This document shows positions 47,896 through 64,000 of a stretch of 64,000 nucleotides of DNA, piece by piece (within the stretch, counting starts at the first letter, position 1; every line of letters begins with the position of its first letter). The position numbers and the translations under genes were made by a program. The notes beneath the pieces were generated by a model that searched no databases, was not told where the DNA came from, and saw only the letters and a program-made list of their open reading frames with translations. Source of the stretch: Chrysophaeum taylorii (taxonomy: Eukaryota > Sar > Pelagophyceae > Pelagomonadales > Pelagomonadaceae); assembly GCA_029834535.1 (NCBI GenBank), contig JAQMWT010000025.1, positions 1 to 64,000 of the forward strand, written 5' to 3'.

Positions 47896-48657
47896 GACCG
47901 ATCCCTAATATCAATGCTATAAGTCGAAAGTTATATGTCGATGAACCACGGACGCAAGTATTTCCCGATGCTGCTTACGTGTCTCATCCTAAGACCTTTT
48001 GCACCTTTAATCGCACAGGGTCTGTTCGCTTAACGGTAGCAGAGCTTACAACATTAACTATGCTTTTTCTACGTCTGCACTCACAGAAAACGACAGAGCA
48101 CCCGTCACTATATGATATTAAAAACATCTCCAATTTTCGCCTTGGATTCCTATCAAACTCAAAGCAACCCTTGTCTTGTATGACATCGCCTATTGAACTC
48201 AACGCGTTTGTCATCCTATACAACATCATGGGACGCTTGTTCCCAAAATCAATTACTTTCCCTGTGTCTTTTCGTATTACCACGTTCGAAACTAACCAAC
48301 CCTCACGCAAGTTATTCTTAAACAAATCCTCAACCACTCCCATCATTTACATCACAGGTGGAAGACACACAGGCGGTGACATCACCGTCACCAACCCCTC
48401 TTCAAAGTACCAAGCTCATATCAACTCATTTGTCGAGACCTATACGCTGCAATCGCATGAGAGCGGAGTCGACAAAATGGCTATTTTAGAATCTGCTACC
48501 GTTTTTTTTGTGGCTATGTCAAGCATATCATCACGCTGGTGAACTGCGGAACACACGTTGCTTAATACACATTCTTGTCTCACACAGTTCTCCAGTGCAT
48601 CTGGATTCACTCATTTTCTACTCGAAAACTAACCTTCTCGAGTTTGTCGACAGGTCT

Positions 48658-48854
48658 TAGAGATACAAAATTTGATTTAGGGTTAGTAACCCCCTATCCT
48701 AGGGTTAGCTCTCTTACTTTTAGCACTTTTTTATTCAGAAAAACGCTGTGTTATTTACACCGTGCTGTCCTCGTTGTTAGAGACAGATACGAGGGCAGAC
48801 TACCACTGCTCTCACTCTGCAGCAGGGTAGCACAGTTGAAATTGCTGTTCTCTA
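48658..48854 (+). repeat. 5' LTR of Copia-B
   Basis: 197 bp beginning TAGAGATACAAAATTTG and ending TGTTCTCTA. Followed by GGTATTGGGC, into which a SINE has inserted. Confidence 0.9.
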
Positions 48855-48864
48855 GGTATTGGGC

Positions 48865-49122
48865 TCCCGGGCGGGCCGGTTGGCAGCCGGAACGTTCGCA
48901 GTGGGACGGGGTATGGCCGGGGGGCGAAGACGGAATGTTATCGACGAGTTGGTTGTCAGTCACATCGCGGTCTCCTCGTCGCATGGCGACAAGCTTGATG
49001 GTCACTCTCCGCCGACCGACCTTTCAGCGCTCCTCGTCTACAGGCCCGTGATTCCGGACTGGCTCCTGTCGGTCCGGCCTGGCTCCCATGCTCGGGAGAG
49101 GTCTGAAGTTAGTTAGTTAGTT
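48865..49122 (+). mobile_element. SINE-like element, copy 2 (5'-truncated)
   Basis: Begins at TCCCGGGCGGGCCGG, about 100 bp into copy 1, and ends in TTAG repeats. An 11-bp target duplication AGGTATTGGGC (48854-48864 and 49123-49133) shows insertion directly at the primer-binding region of Copia-B. The body is nearly identical to copy 1. Confidence 0.9.
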
Positions 49123-52041
49123 AGGTATTGGGCACCAGTCCCGGTATCAGCAGAGTCCCAGGATTTCCAGAAGAGTTCCGCTCCCTGACGTTCCTGAACC
49201 GAAACAAGATGCCAGCCAATCAAGAACTCCAAAAGGAGATAAACGACCAAGAAGCTCGCATAGAGGCAAAAAGCATACAAGGGCGATGCAAGCACAAGCT
49301 CAAGTCATACAAGCACAAGCTCAAGCGCTACAAGCACTCGAAGCACGACTCAATGCCATGCAGACACCACCCGCCGTCGCCGCTGCGACTGCTCCCCCCA
49401 CAGCTCCACAAGACCCCAAGACCAAGTCAAACACCTTCACTGACCCCCCTAGCGCCGTCCTCAAGTCAATGGACTCCGCTCAAGTCACCCCCCAAATGCT
49501 CTCGTTTCGCGTTATGCAGTTGTTCGTCGAACATCTCATGCCTGAAACAGGCACAACGCAATACTTCTTGCAGGGCTTCTACACGTGGGAATCCGTCTTA
49601 CGCGGATCTAATGATCTAGCTGACGCTCTCCTAAGCCACTGCATCAAGGAATATGACAAGGACCCCGATAACCATGCCACCGCCGGCAATACTCAAGATT
49701 TCCAAGGCCGTTTCGTCTACTACAAGGGCGTCTACCGCAAGTTCGGCAAACACTTCCTTGAGAACGTCTATGAGCCAAAACTCCAAGAACTTAAAGACCA
49801 AGACAAAGACACGACCGATACGACGAAAGGAAAGTTATATCCGGACACGCAACCTCACCTACAAGGAAAAGAAGCCGACTTCACCGTGTACCTCCGCGAG
49901 ACCGCGCACCCCCTCTTTCGCCGTATCCTGCATGCCGGTAGCGACTCCGTCAAGCACCCAGCATACGGCGAAATAGATGCACTCGGATCATCCCATCCGA
50001 TAGGACTCGAATTCGTACTACAAGTCCGTCTTGCACTTGACAAGCACACGGGCCAGAACCACGTCCACCATGCGCATTACGTCTACAATGCCTTCCTGGA
50101 CACGCCGTTCAACCCTGAAAATCCACGAACCTGCGCATTATATAGATTATATGCGCCACGTTCAACAACAACTTCGCCAAATCACCGACGATGCCTCTCT
50201 CCAACTTACCGACCGAATAATCCTCAAGGAAATCCACCAAATTCTGCGGTTCAAATACCCCCCCAAGCTTACTATACTCCCGCGCCCCAACGCATATAGA
50301 GGGCTTCACTCGTCTTGCCAACTGCCTTCGCACTCCCAACGACTCGCTGTCACTCGACGAAGACAAAGACGCGATAAACCATTTACCCAAGTTGATCGCC
50401 CGCATCACGGTTATCTCCACTTCGAGCGCAGCTTTTGGGCTCACCTCAAGCCTCACCCCACTCTGAATTTCAAACCGTTGCGATTCGTCACTGACTTCGG
50501 TCGTCTGCCGACCAAAGATAAAGACAATCCACGTTTTCGCTCCCGCCGAAATGGCCTCCACCTCACCGAAGATGATGCCGACACCTCACCCTCTGAAGAT
50601 GAAATTCCCCCAGATCCTGATGAAGCATCCCCAGAAGATAACGACCCCGTCGCTGTCTTTCTCACGGAAGCCAACCTCGATCAAGATGACGACACCGATC
50701 TCATCCAACACCTACACGCTTACCGAAAGAAACAGATGTCCCGCCATCAGAAGAAGACCCCCCCGAAAAAGTCACCAAACCCTCGCTCCCCGTCGTACTA
50801 CGACATCAATGACAGCCCTAAGCCCAAGGCCACCCCTGTCACCCTAACAATGAACAAACACTACCCCGAAAAACACAACCCCGCTGCCACTCCTGTCACC
50901 CCAGACAAACGCGAGTACCCGCACCTCCGCAAGGTCACCTTTCCCACTCAAACCCATCCACCAAAACCATCCACTCCTGACTAACCGTTCAAGGTCCCCC
51001 CCCCCCCCCCGTGATGTTCGTCACAAGCTCCAGATCATCCGGAACCTTAGTCGAGCCGGTCGCCAACACACATCCAACTCAGTGCGCATGACCAAGCTCA
51101 TCAACCTCATCACCAGTATTTCCGATGAGATACTTCTCTCCGAGGTTGATTCCGACGCCGCCGAGTTTCTTCAGGTGCTATCATCCGATCCCCAGGATGA
51201 TCCACCCGGTGAGGGCGCAGCCGACGACGCAGATGACCAACGCCACCTCGGTTTCTATGATGATGACGGACAGCTAGGCCTCTACGACGATAACATTCCC
51301 GAAATAAATGATGATGACGACTCCGCTGAAGACGGCGCACACTGCCACAGCGACTACATGCGTGCTCTACACCAGAGTCAGCTTTTTCGATGATGGTTGC
51401 CGACGACGCATGTGCCGCCAACCAAAAATTACTAAATCAGGCACCACGACTCATGATGAAGAACTTCCCGACATCATCTGAACTCTCTCCCAGAGTCGCA
51501 GACTTTCTTTGTGCCACTTACACTACAGGAAAGACCCCCACAAAGACCAACTCGCTGCACGGATGCAATGGACCCGGCACTGAAATTTCTCTAATTGACG
51601 GTGGCGCATCATTTTGCTTCACTCGCACAATCGAACATTTTGTTCCCGAGTCCATACGCAGGATTCCTGAACATACCATCCGCATGGGCAGAGGCACCTT
51701 AACCAGCCACTTCATCGGTGTCGAACCGTTGTATTTGCACGTTGCAGGTCTCTCCTCAAAGGATGTAAAAGACTCCACAGGTTACGTCTTATACCTCGTC
51801 TTTCTGGTCGTCCCGCACTTCAGACCAGGTCTACAGGTTATAGCGACCTCTCGACTAAAAGCTCTGAACGTTCAAGCAACAGATCCACCGCTGCCCTACG
51901 AACCATACTTGTACGAACTCCTGACCACCTCAACTTCAGATCCCCATGATTACAAAACACTTATAGGCACAACCGCAGTAGTTCTCGCCAATCGCCAAAC
52001 TAATGGTCTCTTGTCCCTGCCATCCCACCCAAAGCAAACAT

Positions 52042-52306
52042 ATCTAACTAACTAACTAACTTACCTACTTACTTACTTCAGACCTCTCCCGAGCATGGGA
52101 GCCAGGCCGGACCGACAGGAGCCAGTCCGGAATCACGGGCCTGTAGACGAGGAGCGCCAAAAGGTCGGTCGACGGAGAGTGACCATCAAGCTTGTCGCAT
52201 GCGACGAGGAGACCGCGATGTGACTGACAACCAACTCGTCGATAACCTTCCGTCTTCGCCCCCCGGCCATACCCCGTCCCACTGCGAACGTTCCGGCTGC
52301 CAACCA
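52042..52306 (-). mobile_element. SINE-like element, copy 3 (5'-truncated, opposite strand)
   Basis: Reverse-complement of copies 1 and 2, with the tail (CTAA/CTTA in plus) at 52043-52078. The head is truncated near the same place as copy 2. AAACAT on both sides (52036-52041, 52307-52312) is a possible short target duplication. It lies between the protease and methyltransferase parts of Copia-B. Confidence 0.85.
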
Positions 52307-52319
52307 AAACATTCCGCGC

Positions 52320-54215
52320 TGTGTTTAGTTTCCACACCGGAACGAAAATGTCCCTCAAGGATGAGCTCGCAAACATAATGCAAAACGTCGCCAAGGCGCG
52401 CTCGCAATCCCGTCTCCTCGATTTCGCCAAATTACTGCAAAATTCTACATTCTTGGCGGAATTGATCAGCCTACCGCGCACTGTCGTCCAATATGCATTC
52501 ACTGGCTCAGCGGACCTCTCTGTGCAAGCACAACCCCCTCCGCTACACACAGCCATTATTGCAGGTGGACTCCACCAAGAAGGCTTTGACTCTTTTCGCA
52601 AACGCTTCGACAAACGCATCACTGTCGTGGTCACCTGTGAAATACACCCTATTATGCGCGCCCGCGCACATCAACTCTTCCCGCACGCTCAGCATTATGC
52701 GGATCTGAGAAAACTCGCTGACGCTCTGCAAACCGGCAAAATACGACTACCTCAACTGGACTTGGCTGTATTCACCTTGCCAAGTCAACATCTGAGTATA
52801 ATGAAAGAATATGACGTCTATGCCACTCCGGTGACCGCCGACCTCTTCGTCAAAGAACAAATCCGCTTTGTTCGTTGGACACTTCCAACATACACTATTG
52901 TCGAGAACGTACCCCCCACCCCCCGAACTTATCACGAGTACACTGAACTTGCCAAATGCTATCAGTGCATGGGTTACTTCAGACACTCCGCCGTCTACAA
53001 TGCCTCCGCTTTTGGTGACGTCATAAGCAAGAACCGCTACCTCGCTGTCTTTGCCCGACATCCGCTCACCGACTACAACCTCGAGAAAACCGCTTCTCCC
53101 TGGTTAATATCTCCTCCGAGCATGGTCCCCCCTCCTGGACCCAAGTCACACTATCCCCGACGATCTCTGGATAGCAAACCGCGCCCTTCGTGGCACAGTG
53201 ACTCGCTCCACGTTTGACTACTACCAGAACAAAGCCACATTCTCGTACGCACCCGCCAACGCAGCTCAACTCTCGATTTCCGAGAATGCACGATCTGCCA
53301 AATGCTTGCGCGCTTGAAGAAGCCCTTCACGGATCTAGGACTCGACGCCGACGGCACCTCTATGCCTCGATGACCAATATCTCCCATCTCTTGGCATTCA
53401 CATTGCTGCACAATCACTTGTCGCAACACCCTACTCTTACCGCATGGAACACACTGCGTTGCTTTCACGCCTCAGAGTCCCAATGTGCTTACCATTGAGA
53501 TGGAGCCATCACCGGCACTGCCGCCGCTGCCGTCGCATGCGGCTACTTCCCGCGCGCATCCCACACCTTGCGCTCACGGCCCCCTACGATACTGGACTGT
53601 TCACACCAACCCGCAGTCTTCTCGCCAACACACACATTCTCCCTGGATGTTCCCAAGGGCACCGCCTTTCTGGTCGTCGCCTATACCAACTCCTTGGCAG
53701 CCGCTCACAGCTGCTTGCGCCCCTCCACGTGGGTCCACTACATGAATCCCGGCTTTGCCGCGATCGATTCACGAGGGCGAATTACTCTCGATGACCCCAC
53801 GGGACTAATAATGTCCGAAGCGCGCCCCACTTTCGCGGATTACGTCGGCGACATCGGCGACACGCTCCAGAAATCCACAAAGTGCTACTCGGTCACTGGC
53901 TCGTACCCAACCAACACGAGCTACTCCAACGCATTACTGCTGATCTCTCCCGACCACATCCGATACGCGACTCTCAATGAAATCGCAAAGTTTGGACACC
54001 ACTCGGACCCGGAACTGCTCCGCCTGTTCCAACAGCATCCGCCGTACTTCGCGTTCAAGGCACTGGCCAACGCCGTCCCGCACAACATGCTGCAGGCTAA
54101 GTACAGCGCTGTCCTCGCACTCCACGAATCGCATGACCATGTGAACCTTCACATCGAATGGGCAACCATACGCAATGGCATTCCCAGCCCCGGAGCCATC
54201 AACCACGTTGCATAA
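52320..54215 (+). pseudogene. C5 cytosine DNA methyltransferase-like domain of Copia-B
   Basis: In cytosine-5 DNA methyltransferases the motif order is I (AdoMet binding), II, IV (catalytic loop), VI (ENV), VIII and X. Here the same order is seen: IIAGG and a following EGF (about 52553), CEIHPIMRARAHQLFP (about 52635, motif II), LDLAVFTLPSQ (about 52757, motif IV region), TIVENVPP (about 52894, motif VI), ASAFGDVISKNRYLAVFAR (about 53002, motif VIII) and ALANAVP (about 54060, motif X). The segment between VIII and X would hold the target-recognition part. The domain sits between protease and integrase, on the same strand, inside the LTR pair. The copy is a fossil, and whether its ancestor was catalytically active cannot be judged from it. 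Assignment is by motif order, not by database search. Confidence 0.8.
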
Positions 54216-57200
54216 TTTTTCTTGAACATCTCCAGCCGTCTCTTAGCAGTGGGGGACCTCAAAATCAACTCCCTCTTCAATGCCGTTGCAGATGCTCACC
54301 ATGCTGCGATCCGCAAGCCAAGCAAATCAAACACTTCGAGACGCTAGTTGCCGAGGCCACAGTTGCTAAAGTCCGAGTCGATAAGCGACACACTCCTCCT
54401 CGGACTTCCACTGCCGCTCTGCCCCCCTTGCACAAGCCCGGCACTATTCAGCACGCAAAAAGAGTGCTTTTGGTCACTCGCTGGCACCGCATACACCACC
54501 AACAACCCGAGATTCTTCGCCGCAAAAGTGCTGCTAATGTAACGAATCTCCGGCCAGGTGATGATCGGTATCTGCAAGACTGCAGCGAATGCAAGCGCTG
54601 TCAACCGCATGTTAGCGTCACCCACAAGAACTCTTCCTGGTCACAGGATGAACTGGCCTACGCCCCTGGCCAACATCTCCACATGGATGTCTCATATCCC
54701 AGCATCAGCAAATGTTATGGTGGCTTTCGATACATCATGCATTTCGTGTGTGTTATTTCGGCACACAAATGGGTATACTTCCTGCGGAAACTGGACGCGC
54801 AGGACGTTCTGGCCGGCATCCTCTACGTGGTCAATGTGATTAAGGTCGAATTCGATGTAAGTGTGAAAATCATCTCGTCTGATGCCTTTTCCACTTTCCG
54901 CTCCGAAGCTTTCCACCCGCTCAAGGCACAACTCGGTATCCAGTTTCAAATCATTGGTCGCCACCTACACCAGCGGAACTTCGCGGAAAACATCATTAAG
55001 GAAAACACACGAGGCATTGTAGTCCGCCTCCTAAAACTTCGCAATGTCCGCATCGAAGGAAAGCCTATTGGCGCCGAGTATTACCACCCGTTTGCTCTAC
55101 TGCATAAGATCCAAGCAGACAATCAGCGCTCTCATGGACTGCCATCGCGCAATAACATGACCTGCGCCGTTCCCCGGCGCATCATGTCACCCACGGCACC
55201 ACTTCTGAAGCTCCTCCCCTTCTGGCGAACCTGTCACCTTTGTCTATCCTCAAAGTCACAAACTGGAACCCTCCAGCGTCTCCGCCTCTTACTTTCGCAG
55301 TAACAACTACCTCCCGAACCTCCCCGGCACGGACCGATTTATCCGTGATGTTCACAGCTCTATCCTGCTTGTACATCAAGGGCGATATGGAAAAATCGTC
55401 ACCTCGAACGACTTCCACGTTGATGCAGACATGCCAGTCAACCGCAACAAGGAGATCGAACGGATCAAAGCACACGCACAGATCCCAGCATAGACACGGC
55501 AAGAGGACCCGCTCCCAGCTATAGGTGAGCAGCCAATGCAAGAAATTAGACAGGAATCGCAAAATGAGGGGGAGACTCATGATAACGACCAGGATGATAA
55601 ACCCGATGATGACGGCGAGCATAAAGGACCAGATCCGACCTCTGCTGCTGATCCAAGTCCCGTCAGCGACGAGACACCTGCACAGGATTTTTCGTTCCTC
55701 AACCGGCCACCTCCGCCGGACGGTAGCATTCCGATGCCCAAGCGAAAGGGTCGCCTAGAGGTTGTTCTCGATGATTCACGTTTTACTCCAGTCCTCGTGC
55801 ATCGCAACCAGAGTGAAAAACTCAAGGCAGATCTCAAGGACGAGCGCGGATTCCGCATTCCTAAATATCAAAACTATATCGTGAAACGTGTCGACGATGG
55901 AAAACTTTTCACCAGACGCATCATCGCATCCGAGTATGGTCGCAATTGGAAATACCCGCAGGAACAACCCACGGCTCGCGCCACAGCCAACATGTCCAGC
56001 ACATATATGTTTCTCATCAGTGTCGGCGCTCTGCACCAGGGCCATGCCGCCAGCATCGCATCTGATCTCAACATTAGAAGGGACGCTAAGCCGCCAGATG
56101 ATGTTCCGACAGGATGCCTCCTCAGAAATACCACTCAAGACTATGGTATCATGGGCGGCACTGCACTGGATCTGCAGAGAGAAACCGACGCAGAACTCTT
56201 GTACGTTGATTTCCCAAGGAAGCCGTGCCACTCATCTGTCTTGGTCGATCACCTGGACAACGACAATTCTGTTCTCGAGAACTATGTATGCCATGACGAA
56301 CTGTCACCGGCAGAGTACTGTGCGCGTCAACGGAACCAAGAATTCTGTTGTATGAGTTCCTCTCTCTGATGGGACATCTCAGCGCATCAGCACTACCACT
56401 TATCTTCTCGTCACAGACACGCCTTCATGCATGATTCTGGCGAAATAGGACACCTCTTTCCAAGTCAAAGTGGTCCGAATCAAGACATTCTCCAAGAAGT
56501 CATGGACTATGACTCACAGCACATCGACCATGTCGTGTTACAACTCTTGACTGCTGAAGACATTGTCTATGAGCCTGAAAAGATTGTCGAACTCAAAAGA
56601 CTCAGCGAAGAAGATAAGCTTAAGCATATTGCTTCGATTCGCAAGGAAATTGAGGGCTCGTGCTCTAACGGCGTCTTTAAGTTCGAACCTTTACCGCCAG
56701 ACCGTTCGTCTATCTCGACGAAACTCGTGCTGAAGATCAAGTATTTTGCTGACGGTACCCCAGACCGCTATAAAGCTCGTCTAGTTGCCCGAGGTTTCTT
56801 GGCACGTGTCGGCATTGACTTTTATGCCACATCTTCACCGACCGCGATGTTCGCCACCAACGGGTTATTGCTCGCCATCGCTGTGAAGCACAGGCTCCCG
56901 GTCGCGCACGCAGACATCCCCCAGGCATTCATCCAATCGGCACTCGATCGCTCGGCATGGATAGACTTACCTCGAGGGATACGTGTCTCGCAAAACCTTG
57001 TCCAACAGATACAGAGGAACCACCCAGAGTCCAAGCTAGCTCTCCGACTCGTCAGTGCTCTCTATGGTCTCAAACAGTCAGCTTTGTTGTGGAACATTAA
57101 GCTCGACTCGTTCCTTCGACAACATGAGCTCGAACGCTCACAAGTAGACACTTGCCTCTATATCAGTTGGGATCGATCTATCAACAGACGGGTTCTCCTA

Positions 57201-58287
57201 TCCGTATCTGTCGATGATCTATTGATCACTGGTACCAACACCGCCAAAATCACATCTCGTCGCACCGCTTTGGAGTAGGAATATGGCAAAGGTACATGGT
57301 ATGATAACGTCCGATCCTTTCTTGGTATCGATGTACACTACAATGTCTCCGCTGGTCACCTCACTATGAATGTAGCCGCGAAGATAAACAAGATGCTCGC
57401 CGAGCATAAAATCAACCTCCGTACTACTGACGTCCCCTACTCGGACATTCTCACTCAAAAACCTTCTGCTAAGCTTCTTTCCGACTTGGCTCCTACCTTA
57501 GAAATTTTACACAAGCATTTTCCCCATTACTGTGGCACTAGTATTTATTTGTCTGTCACTTGTCGTCCAGACATCACCACTCTGTGCAACAAATGCTGCA
57601 TGCACAACCCTGAGCAGACCCATCTTCTCCACTTGTATGTTTTACTTCGCTATTTGTAGGGTACTCCGAATTATTCTCTCGACTATTTATCCGACAGCCC
57701 CTCTATTGCGCCCTTTATTCGGCGTCTGATCGGCAACTACCCATAATTGCATCATCTTCGTTCGCCCATTATTTGTTTTACTGATGCCAGTTTCGCTGAC
57801 CGTTCTGACCCTTGCTTAAGATCTCATCCTGGTGCATGTATTTTCGTATTTGGCAGTCTCGTATTCTGGTCTAGCAAACGCCGAACTCTTACTGCCAAAA
57901 GCACCATGGAAGCCGAAATCATCGCCGCTAGCGCAGCCGCTGATGAATGTCACTGGTTTCATAAAATCTTCTCTTCTCACCCTTATCTGCTTTCACTGAT
58001 CAAGCTCACGCTATTCCCCTGCTTATTGACAACGCTAGCGCCTTACATGTCGCTAATCATCCTAAAGTCAGTGCTCCCTCTCGTCATATCAATTTACGAG
58101 AATTTCGCGTTCGTGACTACCAGGCCAACTCGGTCATTCGTCCTCTCTGGTGTCCCACTCACTACCAGATAGTTGATCATTTTTCAAAGCTCCTTCCCCG
58201 CACTTTATTCCACAAGTTCAAGAACGCCTACGGTGTTCACTCTACATCTTCTTCACCACCATCTCATCAAGTTACTCTTTCTGCTAC

Positions 58288-58501
58288 TAGAGACAGAAAA
58301 TTTGATGTCACCTGGCCGGAGTCCTTGCGCAGTGGTAGAAGTGCTTGTCCTCTGTGCGTCCTGTCTCCTTCGACGCAGGGACAGCACTTGACAGTGTCAG
58401 GTGACGGGCTTCTTGAGCGTGTACGTAGTGTGTTAGCGATATAGAGAGGGGGGGTGTGGTGGGGGGGGGGGTCATGGCGAAAATGGAATTTTCGTTCTCT
58501 A
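58288..58501 (-). repeat. 3' LTR of element D
   Basis: Plus-strand reading starts TAGAGACAGAAAATTTG and ends TTCTCTA. Contains a long G-run at about 58450-58471. Adjacent internal sequence CGCCCTCACAG (58502-58512) is the polypurine-type block in sense. Confidence 0.9.
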
Positions 58502-60692
58502 CGCCCTCACAGAGCGAACTCGGGAGAGTGAAGCTCTGGACCAAGAAAGGTCGACGAAGGAAAAGAGAGGACGGCGGGGAAGTAGCCGAAGAGGCTGCGG
58601 TCGTGAGAAGCTTGGTGGTTGGGTTTGGTGGCGGGCGACGGAGTCGTCCATGGAATCAGGGGAAGGGTCGGGGAAAGGTGCGTTGTAGTAGTTGTGGTCT
58701 TCGTCGTAGAGGCTGTATGAGGCCGAAAGTTCGATTCATGGGGGGTGGGTGATGCGGGTGGTGAGGTGTTGGAGGGTGGATTCGGCTAGAAGAAGGCCTG
58801 GAGGGGTGTAGGTGGTACGGGGGCCGGGTCCGTTGTGTGGGAAGAGGGTATGTTTGAGTGGGGAGTCGGCGTAAGATGGAGGTGGGTCACATGGTGGAGG
58901 CGAAGGAATGCGGTCGGGAGGGGACTTGGGGAAAGGAGTGTCGTGTGCGGGAGGAATGAGGTGGTGTGAGGAGTCCGGGGTTCCGGGACCGGGGCCGGGA
59001 AAGTGGAAGAGGGGTGGGTCGTGAGAGAGGTTGAGGGGAGTGACGCCCTCAGAAGAGCAACGTGGGGCGGAAGGGAGAGTCGGAGCGACAGTGGGTGTGG
59101 GAGCGAAAGGGGTTGGCGGTGAAGGAACAACTTGCGGCTGTGGTACCGGTGGGGATATGGTGTCGGTGCATGGGGGTGTACCAGGGTCGTAACTGTAGTT
59201 GGAGTAGGTGTGAGGGGTGATACGAGGAGCATCCGGGTGGATAGGCGGTGGAAGGGAGTTGAGGATTTGCTAAAGAACAGCATCCTGGGCTCGTTGGGTG
59301 TCGTCGAGGATCGCGAAGGAGGCTTCTTGGGCGGAAAGATGAGCTTGTGCTTGGGCGAGGTCAGATTTGGTTTCGTCGTGAGCACGGGCTTCGGCGTCAA
59401 GGCGGGCGTTGGCGCGGGCGAGTGCGGTTTGAGTTGCGATCAATGCGTGGTAGAGAACTTCGGGGTTCATAGAGGAGGGAGGAAGGGTGGTGGTGTCGGA
59501 GAAGTTGCCAGGGCCGTCACAACCATACGTGGCGTAGTTGCGCGGGTGGAGGCGTTGGTCTTCGGAGAGGAGTGTGCCATGTACCGGGGTAATAATGGCA
59601 GTGGTGTCGGAGATGGGGACTTGAGTGTGGAGTGGTGGTGGTGTGTCGATGAAAGCGAACAAGGTGATGGGGATGGGGTGGTGCCTGGAGAGGCAGACGA
59701 AGGTGGGGTTGTGGTTGGGGTGACGACCGGGATGGTCGGTGGGACGATCGGGACGGTAGGTGTGGTGACCAGGGTGGTCGTGGCTTTGGGTGGTGTGACC
59801 GGAGTGGTCAGGGGTGTTGATGGTGCAGAAGCGGCGGCTATAGTTGGAGGAGCTAGCGGTACGGTCGGAGGGGAGGTTCTGCTGCAAATCGCGTCGATCT
59901 GTTTGGCCCTCTGCTGGTAGAGCTGCTGAAGCATGGCGCGGCTGGCGGCTGCGGCAGCGTCGAACTGCAGTGGGGTATGTAGCTGCCTGTACAGCTGCCG
60001 AGACAGATCGAGGTGGGCGGCTACTCGGGCACGGTGGGCGGCGGAGGCCGCGGCGAGTGCGTCGAGTTGATCGGCGTCGAGATCTTCTTCGTCGTCGTCG
60101 TCGAGATCTGCGTCGTCGGCGGCATGGTCGGCGGCGAAATCGTCTTATGGGGGTGCGATCGCTTGGTGCGGGTCTTGCTTGGTCTTGCGTGCGCGACATC
60201 GTGTGCGGCGAGTCGCGGGACGTGGCTGGGGGCGGAGGGTCTTGATGTGTGAGCGCGCTGGGGGTGGGGTCCGGGGCTGTGAGTGAAGGTGTACTCGTTG
60301 GGGCGGGTGCGGGAGGGGTTCCGCCGGTAAGAGCGGCGAGCTGGTTCTGCAGCTGCCGAAGCTGGTCCCGAAGATGTGCGCTTTCAGCGGTGTGGGCGGC
60401 GTCGCGTCGTTGTTGTTCAGCGTCGCCTCGTTGTTGTTCATCGTCGCGTCGTTGTTGTTCATCGGCGCGTTGTTGTTCGCGTTGGTGTATGTCGTCGATG
60501 GCTTGTCGCATATCTTGGTTGCCGCGAGACATCTTGGCCGATGATGATGACGTGGTTGGGATCTTGGCTTGACTTGAGTTGGGGGAGTGGCGTCGAAGTG
60601 AACTTCGATAGCCTGTCGAGGTCGGGACGTCGAACTAGCGATTGTCTCCGAGTAACGCGAGTTTAAAGGACTCCGCGACTAGGGCCCAAACC

Positions 60693-60912
60693 TAGAGACA
60701 GAAAATTTGATGTCACCTGGGCGGAGTCCTTGTCGCAGTGGTAGAAGTGCTTGTCCTCTGTGCGTCCTGTCTCCTTCGACGCAGGGACAGCACTTGACAG
60801 TATCAGGTGACGGGCTTCTTGAGCGTGTACGTAGTGTGTTAGCGATATAGAGAGGGGGGGTGTGGTGGTGGGGGGGGGGGGGTCGTGGAGAAAATAAAAT
60901 TGTCGTTCTCTA
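60693..60912 (-). repeat. 5' LTR of element D
   Basis: 220 bp, nearly identical to 58288-58501, differing mainly in the G-run and a handful of bases. The primer-binding-type motif TTTGGGCCCTAGTC lies just inside (60690 downward). Confidence 0.9.
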
Positions 60913-61029
60913 GCTACTCTTCCACCGTACAACTCCGCCCAGAACACTCTCTACATTCTTGTCGATGGAAAGTCGCTTCCCGCTTAGTTTGATCCAGATT
61001 TCGCTCACCGAGTTCAATCTGTGAGGGCG

Positions 61030-61226
61030 TAGAGATACAAAATTTGATTTAGGGTTAGTACCCCCCCATCCTAGGGTTAGCTCTCTTACTTTTAGCACTT
61101 TTTAATTCAGAAAAACGCAGTGTTATTCACACCGCGCTATCCTCGTTGTTTGAGACAGATACGAGGGCAGACTACCACTGCTCTCACTCTGCTGAAGGGT
61201 AACATAGTTGAAATTACTGTTCTCTA
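61030..61226 (+). repeat. 3' LTR of Copia-B
   Basis: 197 bp beginning TAGAGATACAAAATTTG and ending TGTTCTCTA, preceded by TTCAATCTGTGAGGGCG. Pairs with 48658-48854 and is followed by the target duplication GGTCT. Confidence 0.9.
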
Positions 61227-64000
61227 GGTCTTTTGCTCTACGTGACATACGCTTGTCTCAAAGCAGGTATCTGGGCTTCATCACCGCTAGTGACAGAAAA
61301 ATGTGAGTTAAAGTACACTCCATCTACACTCCCACTCCCACTATCCGTGGATATGCAAACATGTTGGTGTATGATCCGAGAGTTAATCATCTTCAACATT
61401 ACTCGACACGAGAATTGGCATGCGCCAATAATTTCACAGCGCACCAAACTAATTTTCTTTTGTCTCTACCTCCTGATTTGTGTTGTGACATGATTGCAAA
61501 TGCTATTCCAGCTGGCACCTATCATGTGTTGTATACACATTTGTGCCAGATCGTCTATGATCTGCGTAAATTAACCTTATCTCCATCTTTCGATCCCGAT
61601 CATGCCAAACTAACCAAAACACACAGGTCAGCTGTCTTCCCTAACATCTCTCCTACAGATCACTCACAACTACATTCACTGAGTTTTCTCACAATGCAAC
61701 ATCTACCAAATAAAACTTTCAGGTGTTGTGATAATCTGTCCACTAAACCCGATCTACCTCAGTTTGATGTCGACTCTGTTGCACGTGTATTTATGTCTAA
61801 CATCTCGTCTTTAGATGATACACCAACTTCCACCTCTAAACTTGAAGAAAAGCACATTCCACTAATACACCAAGACAAACACATGAGAAACATGCCTCCT
61901 TCGACAGAAAGGTACATTCTCGTGGTACACTCGCCTTTCGCGATGTACAGCGACGCGCTACAATCTTTCGTGACACTTATCATTCGAGTGACTCTCAAGC
62001 CACAAAAGCTGTTCAGGTCATCTCAAATTCAGGTCACCATCCATTTGACGTTCCATATCGGAAATTTTGTGTTGACTGCACTCTCCACAAGAAAAAGTTC
62101 CCGCACCCCCGCAATTTAACGAAACAGCCATCCTTCGAAAAGACTTTCCAACCTGGGCATGTGATGGTGGATACATATCTATACTCTCCGAGTGGGGTCA
62201 ATTCCGTCACATTTTGGTCTTCAGGTGTCTTACTTCGAAGTTTTTGTTAGTGTACTTCTGTCGCACTACGAATGCTAGCGAATCCTGTAAAGCACTCGAG
62301 CTTGTTCGCAATTTCTGTGCTACCTATGTCCATGTGAAATTGAAACAAATCTACTGTGACTATTTTAAACCCTGTGTCCTATTTGTCCCAGTATGTTACA
62401 ACTCCTTATCGTGTTGAACTTGGCATTTATATGTCTGCTTCCCCGCCTTATTTACATGACTTTAATCATGAGGTAGAAGCCGCTGTTAGTCATATAGCAA
62501 CTGCTGCGCCCACTAGACTTAGGAGCCTACTGAATGTGTCATACAAGGGTCACCCTATAAAAGACCCTGCTCCACATTTTCCGTGGGCTGTAATTCATGC
62601 TGTTCAATCGTATAATCTCCTTCCTAATGTCTCTCTCGAACGTATTTATAATAAAGTGTTAAGTACCCAACAAATGTTGTTGGACCAGTGTAATGTCCCC
62701 CAATAAGACTATCTAAAACCATTCGGTTCTGTATGTTATTTGCATTTGGAATCTAATGAGTTTCATAAATACGAACCTCGCTGTCGTCCCTACATCTACT
62801 TATGTGGCGCTAATGTCATTAACCCGCTGGTTACACCCCATGTTAACCACTTAGCTGATGTTGTTCTCAATCCCGAGAACGGCCAAGTCCGTGTCTCTTC
62901 AAAACTTACCTTTTTCCATACTTCACTTCTAAATCTCCTCCCGATTATGAACAATCCCCACCACCTGCACCTTCTCCTGAAATACCCTTTTATGTTCAAG
63001 GCAGTCCCAGTGATGCGTTGCAGAGGGGAATTGCTGTGTCACCCGACACTGAACACGAGAGGAGGGCTACCTCTACTCCAGCTCCAGCTCCAGCTTCAGT
63101 TCCTGCACCCGCCCCAGCTGCTCCAGTCGCAACACCTACGACACATGAGTTAGCACCAAATGCATTGCCTATCTTGCAAACATTTCGTGAGCTCTTTTCA
63201 CAAGATGACCTTCGTCTCACTCGAGGTCCTAATCAACCTCAACCTCGCCTTAAAACCAATCTTCAAGCTGTACAAGCTCGCATTACCCCGCCGACGATGG
63301 AAGCGTATAAGCAAGCTGGTGGTACGCTCGTCGATTTCAAATATGATTTGTCCAAGCAATACATCACTGTCTTCGACCCCACCCTCCACTCCCTGCATGC
63401 TGCTAATGGCATCCACTGGCTGGCTATGCCTCCAGAGGGGGAATTTACACAAGCCCTTCATCGTCACGTTCACCAAGCGCCATCGCAATCTCCTTCACGC
63501 TCATCTTCTGGTGTGTGTCAAGGCAGTCACATCCATCCGTCGGGTGCCACACCAGTTCTCCCTCTTGATGACCCTAGCCTCACGGATTTCCACTTACCTC
63601 GTGCTCTTGTTCATCTAATCACCGAACATGCCCAAGCATTCCAAGTTCCTCCCGCTCAATACGCGTACGCTCTGCTAACGCCCCCATAATGGCACACAAT
63701 GAAGCCCCCTATGGAGCTTCAGAGCCCCACCTCTCCGACATCGAGGACTACATCAGCGAGCAGGCTCACTATATTGAGGCTCACCTCCACGCTGATCCTC
63801 TACTTGTAGTTCAACTAGTCGAAATTCCCGAACATACTACCGCTCACTCAGATGCTGATTCTTACGAGATCACCTATTTAACCCAAGATCAAGATCCTAG
63901 CACGGTCGGCTCTGATGAGTACAAGATCCAAGCTAAAGACATCAAGATCGATGAGTATGAGGTGACCTGCCTAAAAGGTCTTTCAGACGCTGATCGCAAG

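What the first reader, a model, noticed from the sequence alone, without database searches (positions are those of the whole stretch)
52320..54215. A Copia retrotransposon carrying a C5 cytosine DNA methyltransferase domain
Seen: methyltransferase motifs I, II, IV, VI, VIII and X in order, between protease and integrase of an LTR element with matching LTRs and target duplication. Known: standard Copia elements lack such a domain, and LTR elements with captured cytosine methyltransferases have been reported only in a few protist and algal lineages (as I recall, Symbiodinium-type dinoflagellates and Klebsormidium). Inference: this is a further capture, perhaps used by the family to modify its own DNA or escape host control.
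Basis: partly seen in the sequence, partly recalled or inferred. Interest (0 to 1): 0.92.

Follow-up and report, generated by a model that had tools for sequence, protein, structure and literature searches.

The report
Copia retrotransposons carrying a cytosine methyltransferase
A large family of jumping genes in an unnamed, probably algal, genome carries inside its own protein a DNA-methylating enzyme that resembles those of bacteria and their viruses more than the host's own two, and evolution has kept that enzyme intact in most copies examined.

Summary
Window 52321-54215 lies inside a Ty1/Copia LTR element (48659-61226; target duplication GGTCTT), between protease and integrase, and encodes a C5 cytosine methyltransferase (MT) module. 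From the window alone it is borderline (PF00145 21.4 bits, cut-off 22), and this copy is dead: broken frame, catalytic PCQ reads PSQ. Other copies settle it: about 154 MT loci in the genome; 97 of 128 reverse-transcriptase loci have MT upstream; 9 of 10 copies chosen for long frames keep an open 625-633-aa module; 5 of 5 score 32-35 bits; PCQ is kept in 32 of 36, ENV in 34 of 38. dN/dS is 0.22-0.24 (gag 0.20, protease 0.18, integrase 0.13). MT divergence tracks gag-PR and IN (r 0.95, 0.93): one acquisition, then inheritance. No MT was found at 8 sister or 13 more distant Copia loci. The module matches bacterial and phage C5-methyltransferases, not the host's DNMT2 or DNMT5; Dnmt3 was not testable. 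DNMT-bearing retrotransposons are known (LINE, DIRS, Gypsy). This is a new variant: Copia, orphan bacterial-type enzyme, between PR and IN. Methylation of its own cDNA is plausible, not shown; the CpG test gave no clear imprint.

The parts
48653..48658 (.). target duplication GGTCTT, 5' copy (3' copy 61227-61232)
   Evidence: site without insertion in L028
48659..48854 (+). 5' LTR (AGAGA...TCTCTA)
48868..49121 (+). inserted repeat of about 250 bp, not part of the element
   Evidence: absent from this place in copies such as L009; abundant in the genome
49286..50299 (+). gag-like ORF (no Pfam match; named by position)
   Evidence: collinear in other copies
51390..52055 (+). protease-like ORF with DGGAS at 51597-51611 (no Pfam match; named by motif and position)
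52042..52306 (-). second insertion of the 250-bp repeat, inverted
52321..53217 (+). MT module, first part: motifs I to VIII, catalytic PCQ mutated to PSQ
   Evidence: PF00145
53218..53567 (+). middle of the MT module, frame broken in this copy
   Evidence: three-frame translation
53568..54215 (+). MT module, last part: rest of the middle region, motifs IX and X
54158..55303 (+). integrase ORF (rve core about 54659-54952)
   Evidence: PF00665 25.8 bits, cut-off 32.6
56427..57278 (+). reverse transcriptase ORF
   Evidence: PF07727 RVT_2 111.4 bits
57747..58172 (+). RNase H-like ORF (named by sequence look, no Pfam support)
58289..60912 (-). nested LTR element (LTRs 58289-58501 and 60694-60912, duplication GCTACT), not part of the Copia element
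61031..61226 (+). 3' LTR

Best explanation
A Ty1/Copia lineage of this genome acquired, once, a C5 cytosine methyltransferase of bacterial or phage type, placed it in frame between protease and integrase, and kept it under selection while spreading to about 150 loci. Shown: the domain, its place, its spread, its inheritance with the element, purifying selection, and retention of the catalytic Cys, Glu-Asn-Val and last Arg in most copies. Inferred: origin from bacteria or phage; catalytic activity; and the role. As part of Pol it would be packaged with reverse transcriptase and integrase and would methylate cytosines of new cDNA before integration, a mark that the host, which encodes a DNMT5, could read as self or maintain. 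The window copy no longer works. My confidence by step: MT module fixed in this Copia family 0.97, kept by selection 0.85, bacterial/phage type 0.65, active on its own cDNA 0.45.
For: PF00145, TIGR00675, PHROG and PADLOC matches; phage and plasmid tblastn; shuffle control; 154 MT loci and 97 of 128 RT loci with MT upstream; 19 of 20 fetched stretches run from gag-PR straight into MT; open modules in 9 of 10 chosen copies; one 1868-aa frame with protease motif, MT and RVT_2; catalytic letters; dN/dS; correlated divergence; absence at 8 sister and 13 further Copia loci; host DNMT2 and DNMT5 do not match the family profile.
Against: Motif I lacks the usual FxGxG form and motif VIII lacks the Gln and first Arg (I and Lys instead), so activity is not certain. 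MT has the highest dN/dS of the six pieces tested. No clear CpG imprint: CpG observed/expected 1.02-1.09 in eight copies, lower than host stretches (1.19-1.46) but higher than one Copia stretch without MT (0.78), and only a small excess of CpG transitions. No homologue in three protein-database searches. 31 of 128 RT loci have no MT found. The phage enzymes compared were chosen because they matched; Dnmt1, Dnmt3 and Dnmt6 were not compared.
Confidence: 0.6

Rival explanations
1. The module is an active enzyme, but its substrate is RNA in the particle (genomic RNA or primer tRNA) rather than cDNA.
For: No clear CpG imprint; PMC5890265 suggests RNA as substrate for the LINE enzyme, which did not methylate DNA in yeast.
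Against: Nearest matches are DNA methyltransferases of phages and plasmids; no match to the host's DNMT2, the tRNA-type enzyme.
Confidence: 0.17
2. Catalysis is lost; the module is kept as a nucleic-acid-binding or structural part of Pol.
For: Departures in motifs I and VIII; dN/dS somewhat above IN and RT.
Against: PCQ in 32 of 36 and ENV in 34 of 38 copies; the motif I-VIII part is the most constrained part of MT (0.145).
Confidence: 0.2
3. The module came from a eukaryotic DNMT (for instance a Dnmt3, as in the Klebsormidium and Symbiodinium elements) and has diverged beyond recognition.
For: Known precedents took Dnmt3; matches to bacterial enzymes are only about 25% identical and could reflect what the libraries hold.
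Against: Of 10 PDB rows found with the core profile, 9 are cytosine methyltransferases, 7 of them M.HhaI, none a eukaryotic DNMT, though all are weak (E 0.008 or worse); host DNMT2 and DNMT5 do not match.
Confidence: 0.25
4. Private insertion into this one element, or a chance series of motifs.
For: The window ORF alone is below the Pfam cut-off.
Against: Family-wide presence, correlated divergence, several libraries at E about 1e-7 to 1e-11, shuffle control.
Confidence: 0.01

Closest known systems
KnitGypsy-Dnmt3 of Klebsormidium nitens (PMC5890265, passages)
   Same: LTR retrotransposon with a C5 methyltransferase in the Pol frame, several copies, purifying selection
   Different: Gypsy, not Copia; the enzyme is Dnmt3; repeats arranged as in DIRS according to the legend seen
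SymbioDIRS-Dnmt3 and SymbioLINE-Dnmt of Symbiodinium (PMC5890265, parts 1, 2 and 4 of 7)
   Same: retrotransposons with hundreds of DNMT copies under purifying selection; the LINE enzyme is an orphan DNMT
   Different: DIRS (tyrosine recombinase) or LINE elements; that paper states that Copia in Symbiodinium lacks any DNMT domain
DNMT3 in 'LTR Copia and DIRS' elements, one sentence in PMC12344493 section 5
   Same: names Copia as a carrier of a DNMT
   Different: DNMT3; cites the 2018 paper, whose text says Gypsy, so it may be a slip; no details given in the section read
phage C5 methyltransferases of the phrog_116 type
   Same: best-scoring family (up to 45 bits); similar motif IV and VI, and in phage phi17:2_18 a motif VIII ending SRKRYF like SKTRYL here
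   Different: 371-aa stand-alone phage protein; about 27% identity over 28% of the module
DIRS elements with Dam-like adenine methyltransferase, and a ParB-methyltransferase gene in an Ectocarpus Sola1 transposon (PMC5890265 part 1; PMC12477816 passages)
   Same: transposon carrying a DNA methyltransferase
   Different: different enzyme class and base; Sola1 is a DNA transposon

Membership tests
C5 cytosine methyltransferase (PF00145) | profile match above the curated cut-off | tested here: met
   5 of 5 copies given 32.4-35.2 bits against 22; the window copy 21.4, not met on its own
C5 cytosine methyltransferase (PF00145) | catalytic PCQ and ENV | tested here: met
   PCQ 32 of 36, ENV 34 of 38 distinct copies; window copy PSQ
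C5 cytosine methyltransferase (PF00145) | canonical motif I (FxGxG) and motif VIII (QRxR) | tested here: not met
   AGGLHQEGF in 29 of 38; SKxR-type VIII in 35 of 36, one with a stop; canonical forms recalled
C5 cytosine methyltransferase (PF00145) | methylates cytosine in DNA | not testable with these tools
   needs an assay
Ty1/Copia LTR retrotransposon | LTRs, target duplication, Copia-type RT (RVT_2), integrase before RT | tested here: met
   rve below its cut-off of 32.6 bits wherever matched
DNMT-encoding retrotransposon (as in PMC5890265) | DNMT within the coding region of the element, shared by copies, under purifying selection | tested here: met
Dnmt3 (enzyme of SymbioDIRS and KnitGypsy) | groups with Dnmt3 in a tree | not tested
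   no Dnmt3 reference sequences at hand; no eukaryotic DNMT among 10 PDB rows
host DNMT2 or DNMT5 as source | closer to the host enzyme than to bacterial or phage ones | tested here: not met
   family profile: phage enzymes 29.3, 14.9, 13.5 bits; host DNMT2 -2.5; host DNMT5 not reported; phage enzymes were chosen as matches
bacterial dcm (TIGR00675) | score above the naming cut-off of 100.65 | tested here: not met
   29.4-33.7 bits in 4 of 4

The most novel reading that the evidence does not exclude
A Copia retrotransposon took an orphan C5 methyltransferase from a bacterium or phage, not from its host, and uses it as a self-modification enzyme: cDNA is methylated inside the particle before integration, a eukaryotic parallel to phages that modify their own DNA.
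Probability: 0.3. Interest if true: 0.85.

Novelty: new variant of a known kind. Interest (0 to 1): 0.64.

Why it matters
It adds another retroelement class (Copia), an apparently different enzyme source (bacterial/phage-like rather than Dnmt3) and, on indirect host evidence, another algal lineage to the few known cases of transposons that carry the kind of enzyme used to silence them. Recurrent capture by unrelated element classes argues that a methyltransferase helps retrotransposition. A genome with about 150 MT loci beside Copia clades without MT allows a direct comparison of methylation and spread within one host.

Tried and rejected
Protein database: three searches (region of a long frame, alignment A1, core region) gave no homologue; in the first two only the 7978 and 7998 candidates sharing most words were scored. 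Viral contigs (IMG/VR): two scans, no relative. Rfam on the window: no match. Structure prediction of the window's first MT ORF alone: mean pLDDT 33.3, unusable, no fold search run. CpG imprint of self-methylation: no clear result. Host name not established: a chlorophyll a/b-binding match beside the host DNMT2, a DNMT5, and an MLKL-like kinase with armadillo repeats suggest a photosynthetic alga, perhaps an ochrophyte such as a pelagophyte (inference). Considered and rejected: private insertion; chance motifs; bacterial contamination (MT lies in frame with Copia Pol in several contigs).

Novelty search: (listings; nine searches of an open-licence PMC library) showed no report of a Copia element with a C5-MTase other than the one sentence on DNMT3 in PMC12344493. 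Papers seen: PMC5890265 parts 1, 2 and 4 of 7 and passages; PMC12344493 section 5 and passages; PMC9998398, PMC12477816, PMC6338049, PMC11453091 and PMC3145265 passages only.

Full report
What was checked. The finding names 52320-54215. Pfam on eight ORFs of the window element gives PF00145 DNA_methylase on 52321-53214 (E 1.9e-4, 21.4 bits, cut-off 22), rve integrase on 54158-55300 (25.8 bits, cut-off 32.6) and RVT_2 on 56427-57275 (111.4 bits); nothing relevant on the other five. The window alone leaves doubt. The whole genome (G000, 70.8 Mb, 697 contigs; the window is contig C25, 1-64000) removes it.

Anatomy. The element runs from 48659 to 61226, with LTRs 48659-48854 and 61031-61226 (13 differences in 197 aligned bases, K2P 0.069) and target duplication GGTCTT. 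It sits in another repeat; L028 carries a related stretch in which the two flanks, 47971-48656 and 61226-61531, are contiguous. A repeat of about 250 bp is inserted near 48868-49121 and, inverted, at 52042-52306; a nested LTR element lies at 58289-60912 with its own duplication GCTACT. A genome search with that repeat scored 40 of 1220 candidates, all at 99-100% identity, so it is young and probably common. Order on the plus strand: gag-like, protease-like, MT, integrase, reverse transcriptase, RNase H-like; that is Copia order with MT added. Gag, protease and RNase H are named by position and look, not by a profile.

State of this copy. It is a relic. MT is split into ORFs 52321-53217 and 53568-54215 with frame changes between, and motif IV reads PSQ at 52780-52788. 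Of 36 distinct copies that cover this motif 32 have PCQ; the others are PSQ (the window), PCL, QCN and ECN, the last two in alignments that look frame-shifted (46 loci given, deduplicated by local context).

The family. A search with the first MT piece found 143 places (132 of 467 candidates scored), with the second piece 151 (150 of 279 scored). PF00145 itself found 57 places (123 of 474 scored): two are host genes, 54 coincide with places, and one (C670) lies beside a place. Merged within 2.5 kb, the 143 places, that one and the 150 listed make 154 loci, haplotype pairs such as C25/C521 included. Of 128 merged RT loci (137 of 1378 candidates scored), 97 have MT within 9 kb upstream, median 2.2 kb; 31 do not. 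The 31 include three RTs of 42-43% identity and short pieces, and may include misses due to the scoring caps. Twenty 10-kb stretches, chosen from the MT places, all contain the MT region; 19 of 20 run from the gag-PR part straight into MT, and L016 is rearranged. Ten copies were then chosen for long open frames: 9 of 10 are open through 625-633 codons of MT, one has a stop. One 1868-aa frame holds the protease motif, MT and RVT_2.

Is it a methyltransferase. Five of five copies given exceed the PF00145 cut-off (32.4-35.2 bits). TIGR00675 dcm matches four of four at 29.4-33.7 bits, far below its naming cut-off of 100.65. PHROG families 116 and 363, both DNA methyltransferase, match three of three (up to 45 bits), and every PADLOC row is a methyltransferase model. 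tblastn with one copy against 50,697 phage records matched 14, all under 33% identity; 12 are annotated, each as DNA methylase or methyltransferase, 2 have no annotation. Only two, the same phage genome in two records, reach E 8e-6; the rest are 0.03 to 0.3. In plasmids 638 records matched; of 15 listed, 13 are annotated as cytosine methyltransferase and 2 have no feature under the match, with E 0.01 to 0.5. A profile of nine copies scores 29.3 bits against one phage enzyme; the best of 1500 shuffled phage sequences scores 2.6. Motifs IX and X follow after a middle part of about 285 residues, read by eye. Motif I is not of the usual form, and in VIII the alignment to M.HhaI puts Ile and Lys where that enzyme has Gln and the first Arg, while the last Arg is kept.

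Where it comes from. The host encodes a DNMT2 (137.9 bits to 1g55, labelled DNMT2) and a DNMT5 (482.1 bits to 7r76, labelled Rad8 in the PDB; that this is the Cryptococcus DNMT5 is recalled). The family profile matches neither (DNMT2 -2.5 bits, DNMT5 not reported) but matches three phage enzymes at 29.3, 14.9 and 13.5 bits. Those three were fetched because they matched, so this shows only that phage enzymes are nearer than the host's two. Against the PDB the core profile returned 10 rows: nine cytosine methyltransferases, seven of them M.HhaI sequences, one unrelated channel, no eukaryotic DNMT; all weak, E 0.008 or worse. Bacterial or phage type is the better reading at present, not proven; Dnmt3 was not tested.

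Selection and inheritance. In the 20 stretches, pieces without stops that cover at least 70% of the query give median dN/dS of MT 0.217 (19 copies) and 0.243 (15), gag 0.198 (14), PR 0.175 (11), IN 0.132 (14), RT 0.125 (5). MT is thus constrained like the structural genes and less than IN and RT. Within MT the motif I-VIII part has 0.145, the middle 0.209, the IX-X part 0.161 and the stretch before motif I 0.287, in nine open copies. Decay after insertion raises such values, so selection during spread was probably stronger. Pairwise distances of MT correlate with IN (r 0.93, 20 loci) and gag-PR (r 0.95, 19 loci); 0 of 2000 permutations reach either. The simplest reading is one acquisition followed by inheritance with the element.

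When. RTs of a sister clade (64-100% identical to the L022 RT, about 42% to this family) occupy 8 loci. None has an MT hit of its own within 12 kb; the one near C681 belongs to the neighbouring element on the other strand. The next clade (35%) has 13 loci, none with MT within 9 kb. Of 150 gag_pre-integrs places of ordinary Copia elements (150 of 206 candidates scored), none lies within 4 kb of an MT hit. A diverged MT could have been missed by the capped searches.

Function. The place in Pol, the kept catalytic letters and the selection argue for an enzyme used during retrotransposition. Methylation of cDNA is the proposal made for SymbioDIRS, whose enzyme methylated CG in yeast, while the LINE enzyme did not (PMC5890265). 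Here the composition test gave no clear answer: CpG observed/expected is 1.02-1.09 in eight copies, below the host stretches looked at (1.19 for window 1-46000, 1.26 and 1.46 at the two host DNMT loci) but above one Copia stretch without MT (0.78); transitions at CpG are 7.2% against 5.7% at other C sites, transversions equal. The 2018 paper found no significant depletion in SymbioDIRS either. RNA methylation or a binding role remain open.

Known and new. DNMT-bearing retrotransposons are known in LINE, DIRS and Gypsy form; that paper states that Copia in Symbiodinium lacks a DNMT. PMC12344493 names LTR Copia with DNMT3 in one sentence citing it, perhaps meaning Gypsy. The present family differs in element class, apparent enzyme type and the place between protease and integrase. 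I rate it a new variant of a known kind.

Noticed in passing
window 48868-49121 and 52042-52306: A repeat of about 250 bp ending in GTTA repeats, inserted twice in opposite orientation; 40 of 1220 candidates scored, all 99-100% identical, so a young and probably abundant short mobile element.
   Followed up: partly
window 58289-60912: Nested LTR element with 6-bp duplication and a reverse-strand ORF of 420 aa (59270-60532), without RT; its LTR ends resemble those of the Copia element (AGAGA...TCTCTA).
   Followed up: partly
window 51597-51611 and copies L009, L012, L014, L018: The protease motif reads DGGAS in the window and in the four related frames that cover it, instead of the usual D-S/T-G (recalled).
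   Followed up: no
window 15779-22653: Two overlapping ORFs with an MLKL N-terminal-like domain, protein kinase and a long armadillo-repeat region, probably one host gene split by a frame change or intron.
   Followed up: no
L030 1006-3537 and L029 1498-2577: Host DNMT5-like and DNMT2-like genes; beside the latter, on the other strand, a chlorophyll a/b-binding protein match.
   Followed up: partly
contigs C25 and C521: Both carry the same element at nearly the same offset (first MT piece identical), so the assembly seems to hold both haplotypes; copy counts include such pairs.
   Followed up: no
L022 301-1689 and seven further loci: A small sister Copia clade (about 42% RT identity) in which no MT was found.
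   Followed up: partly
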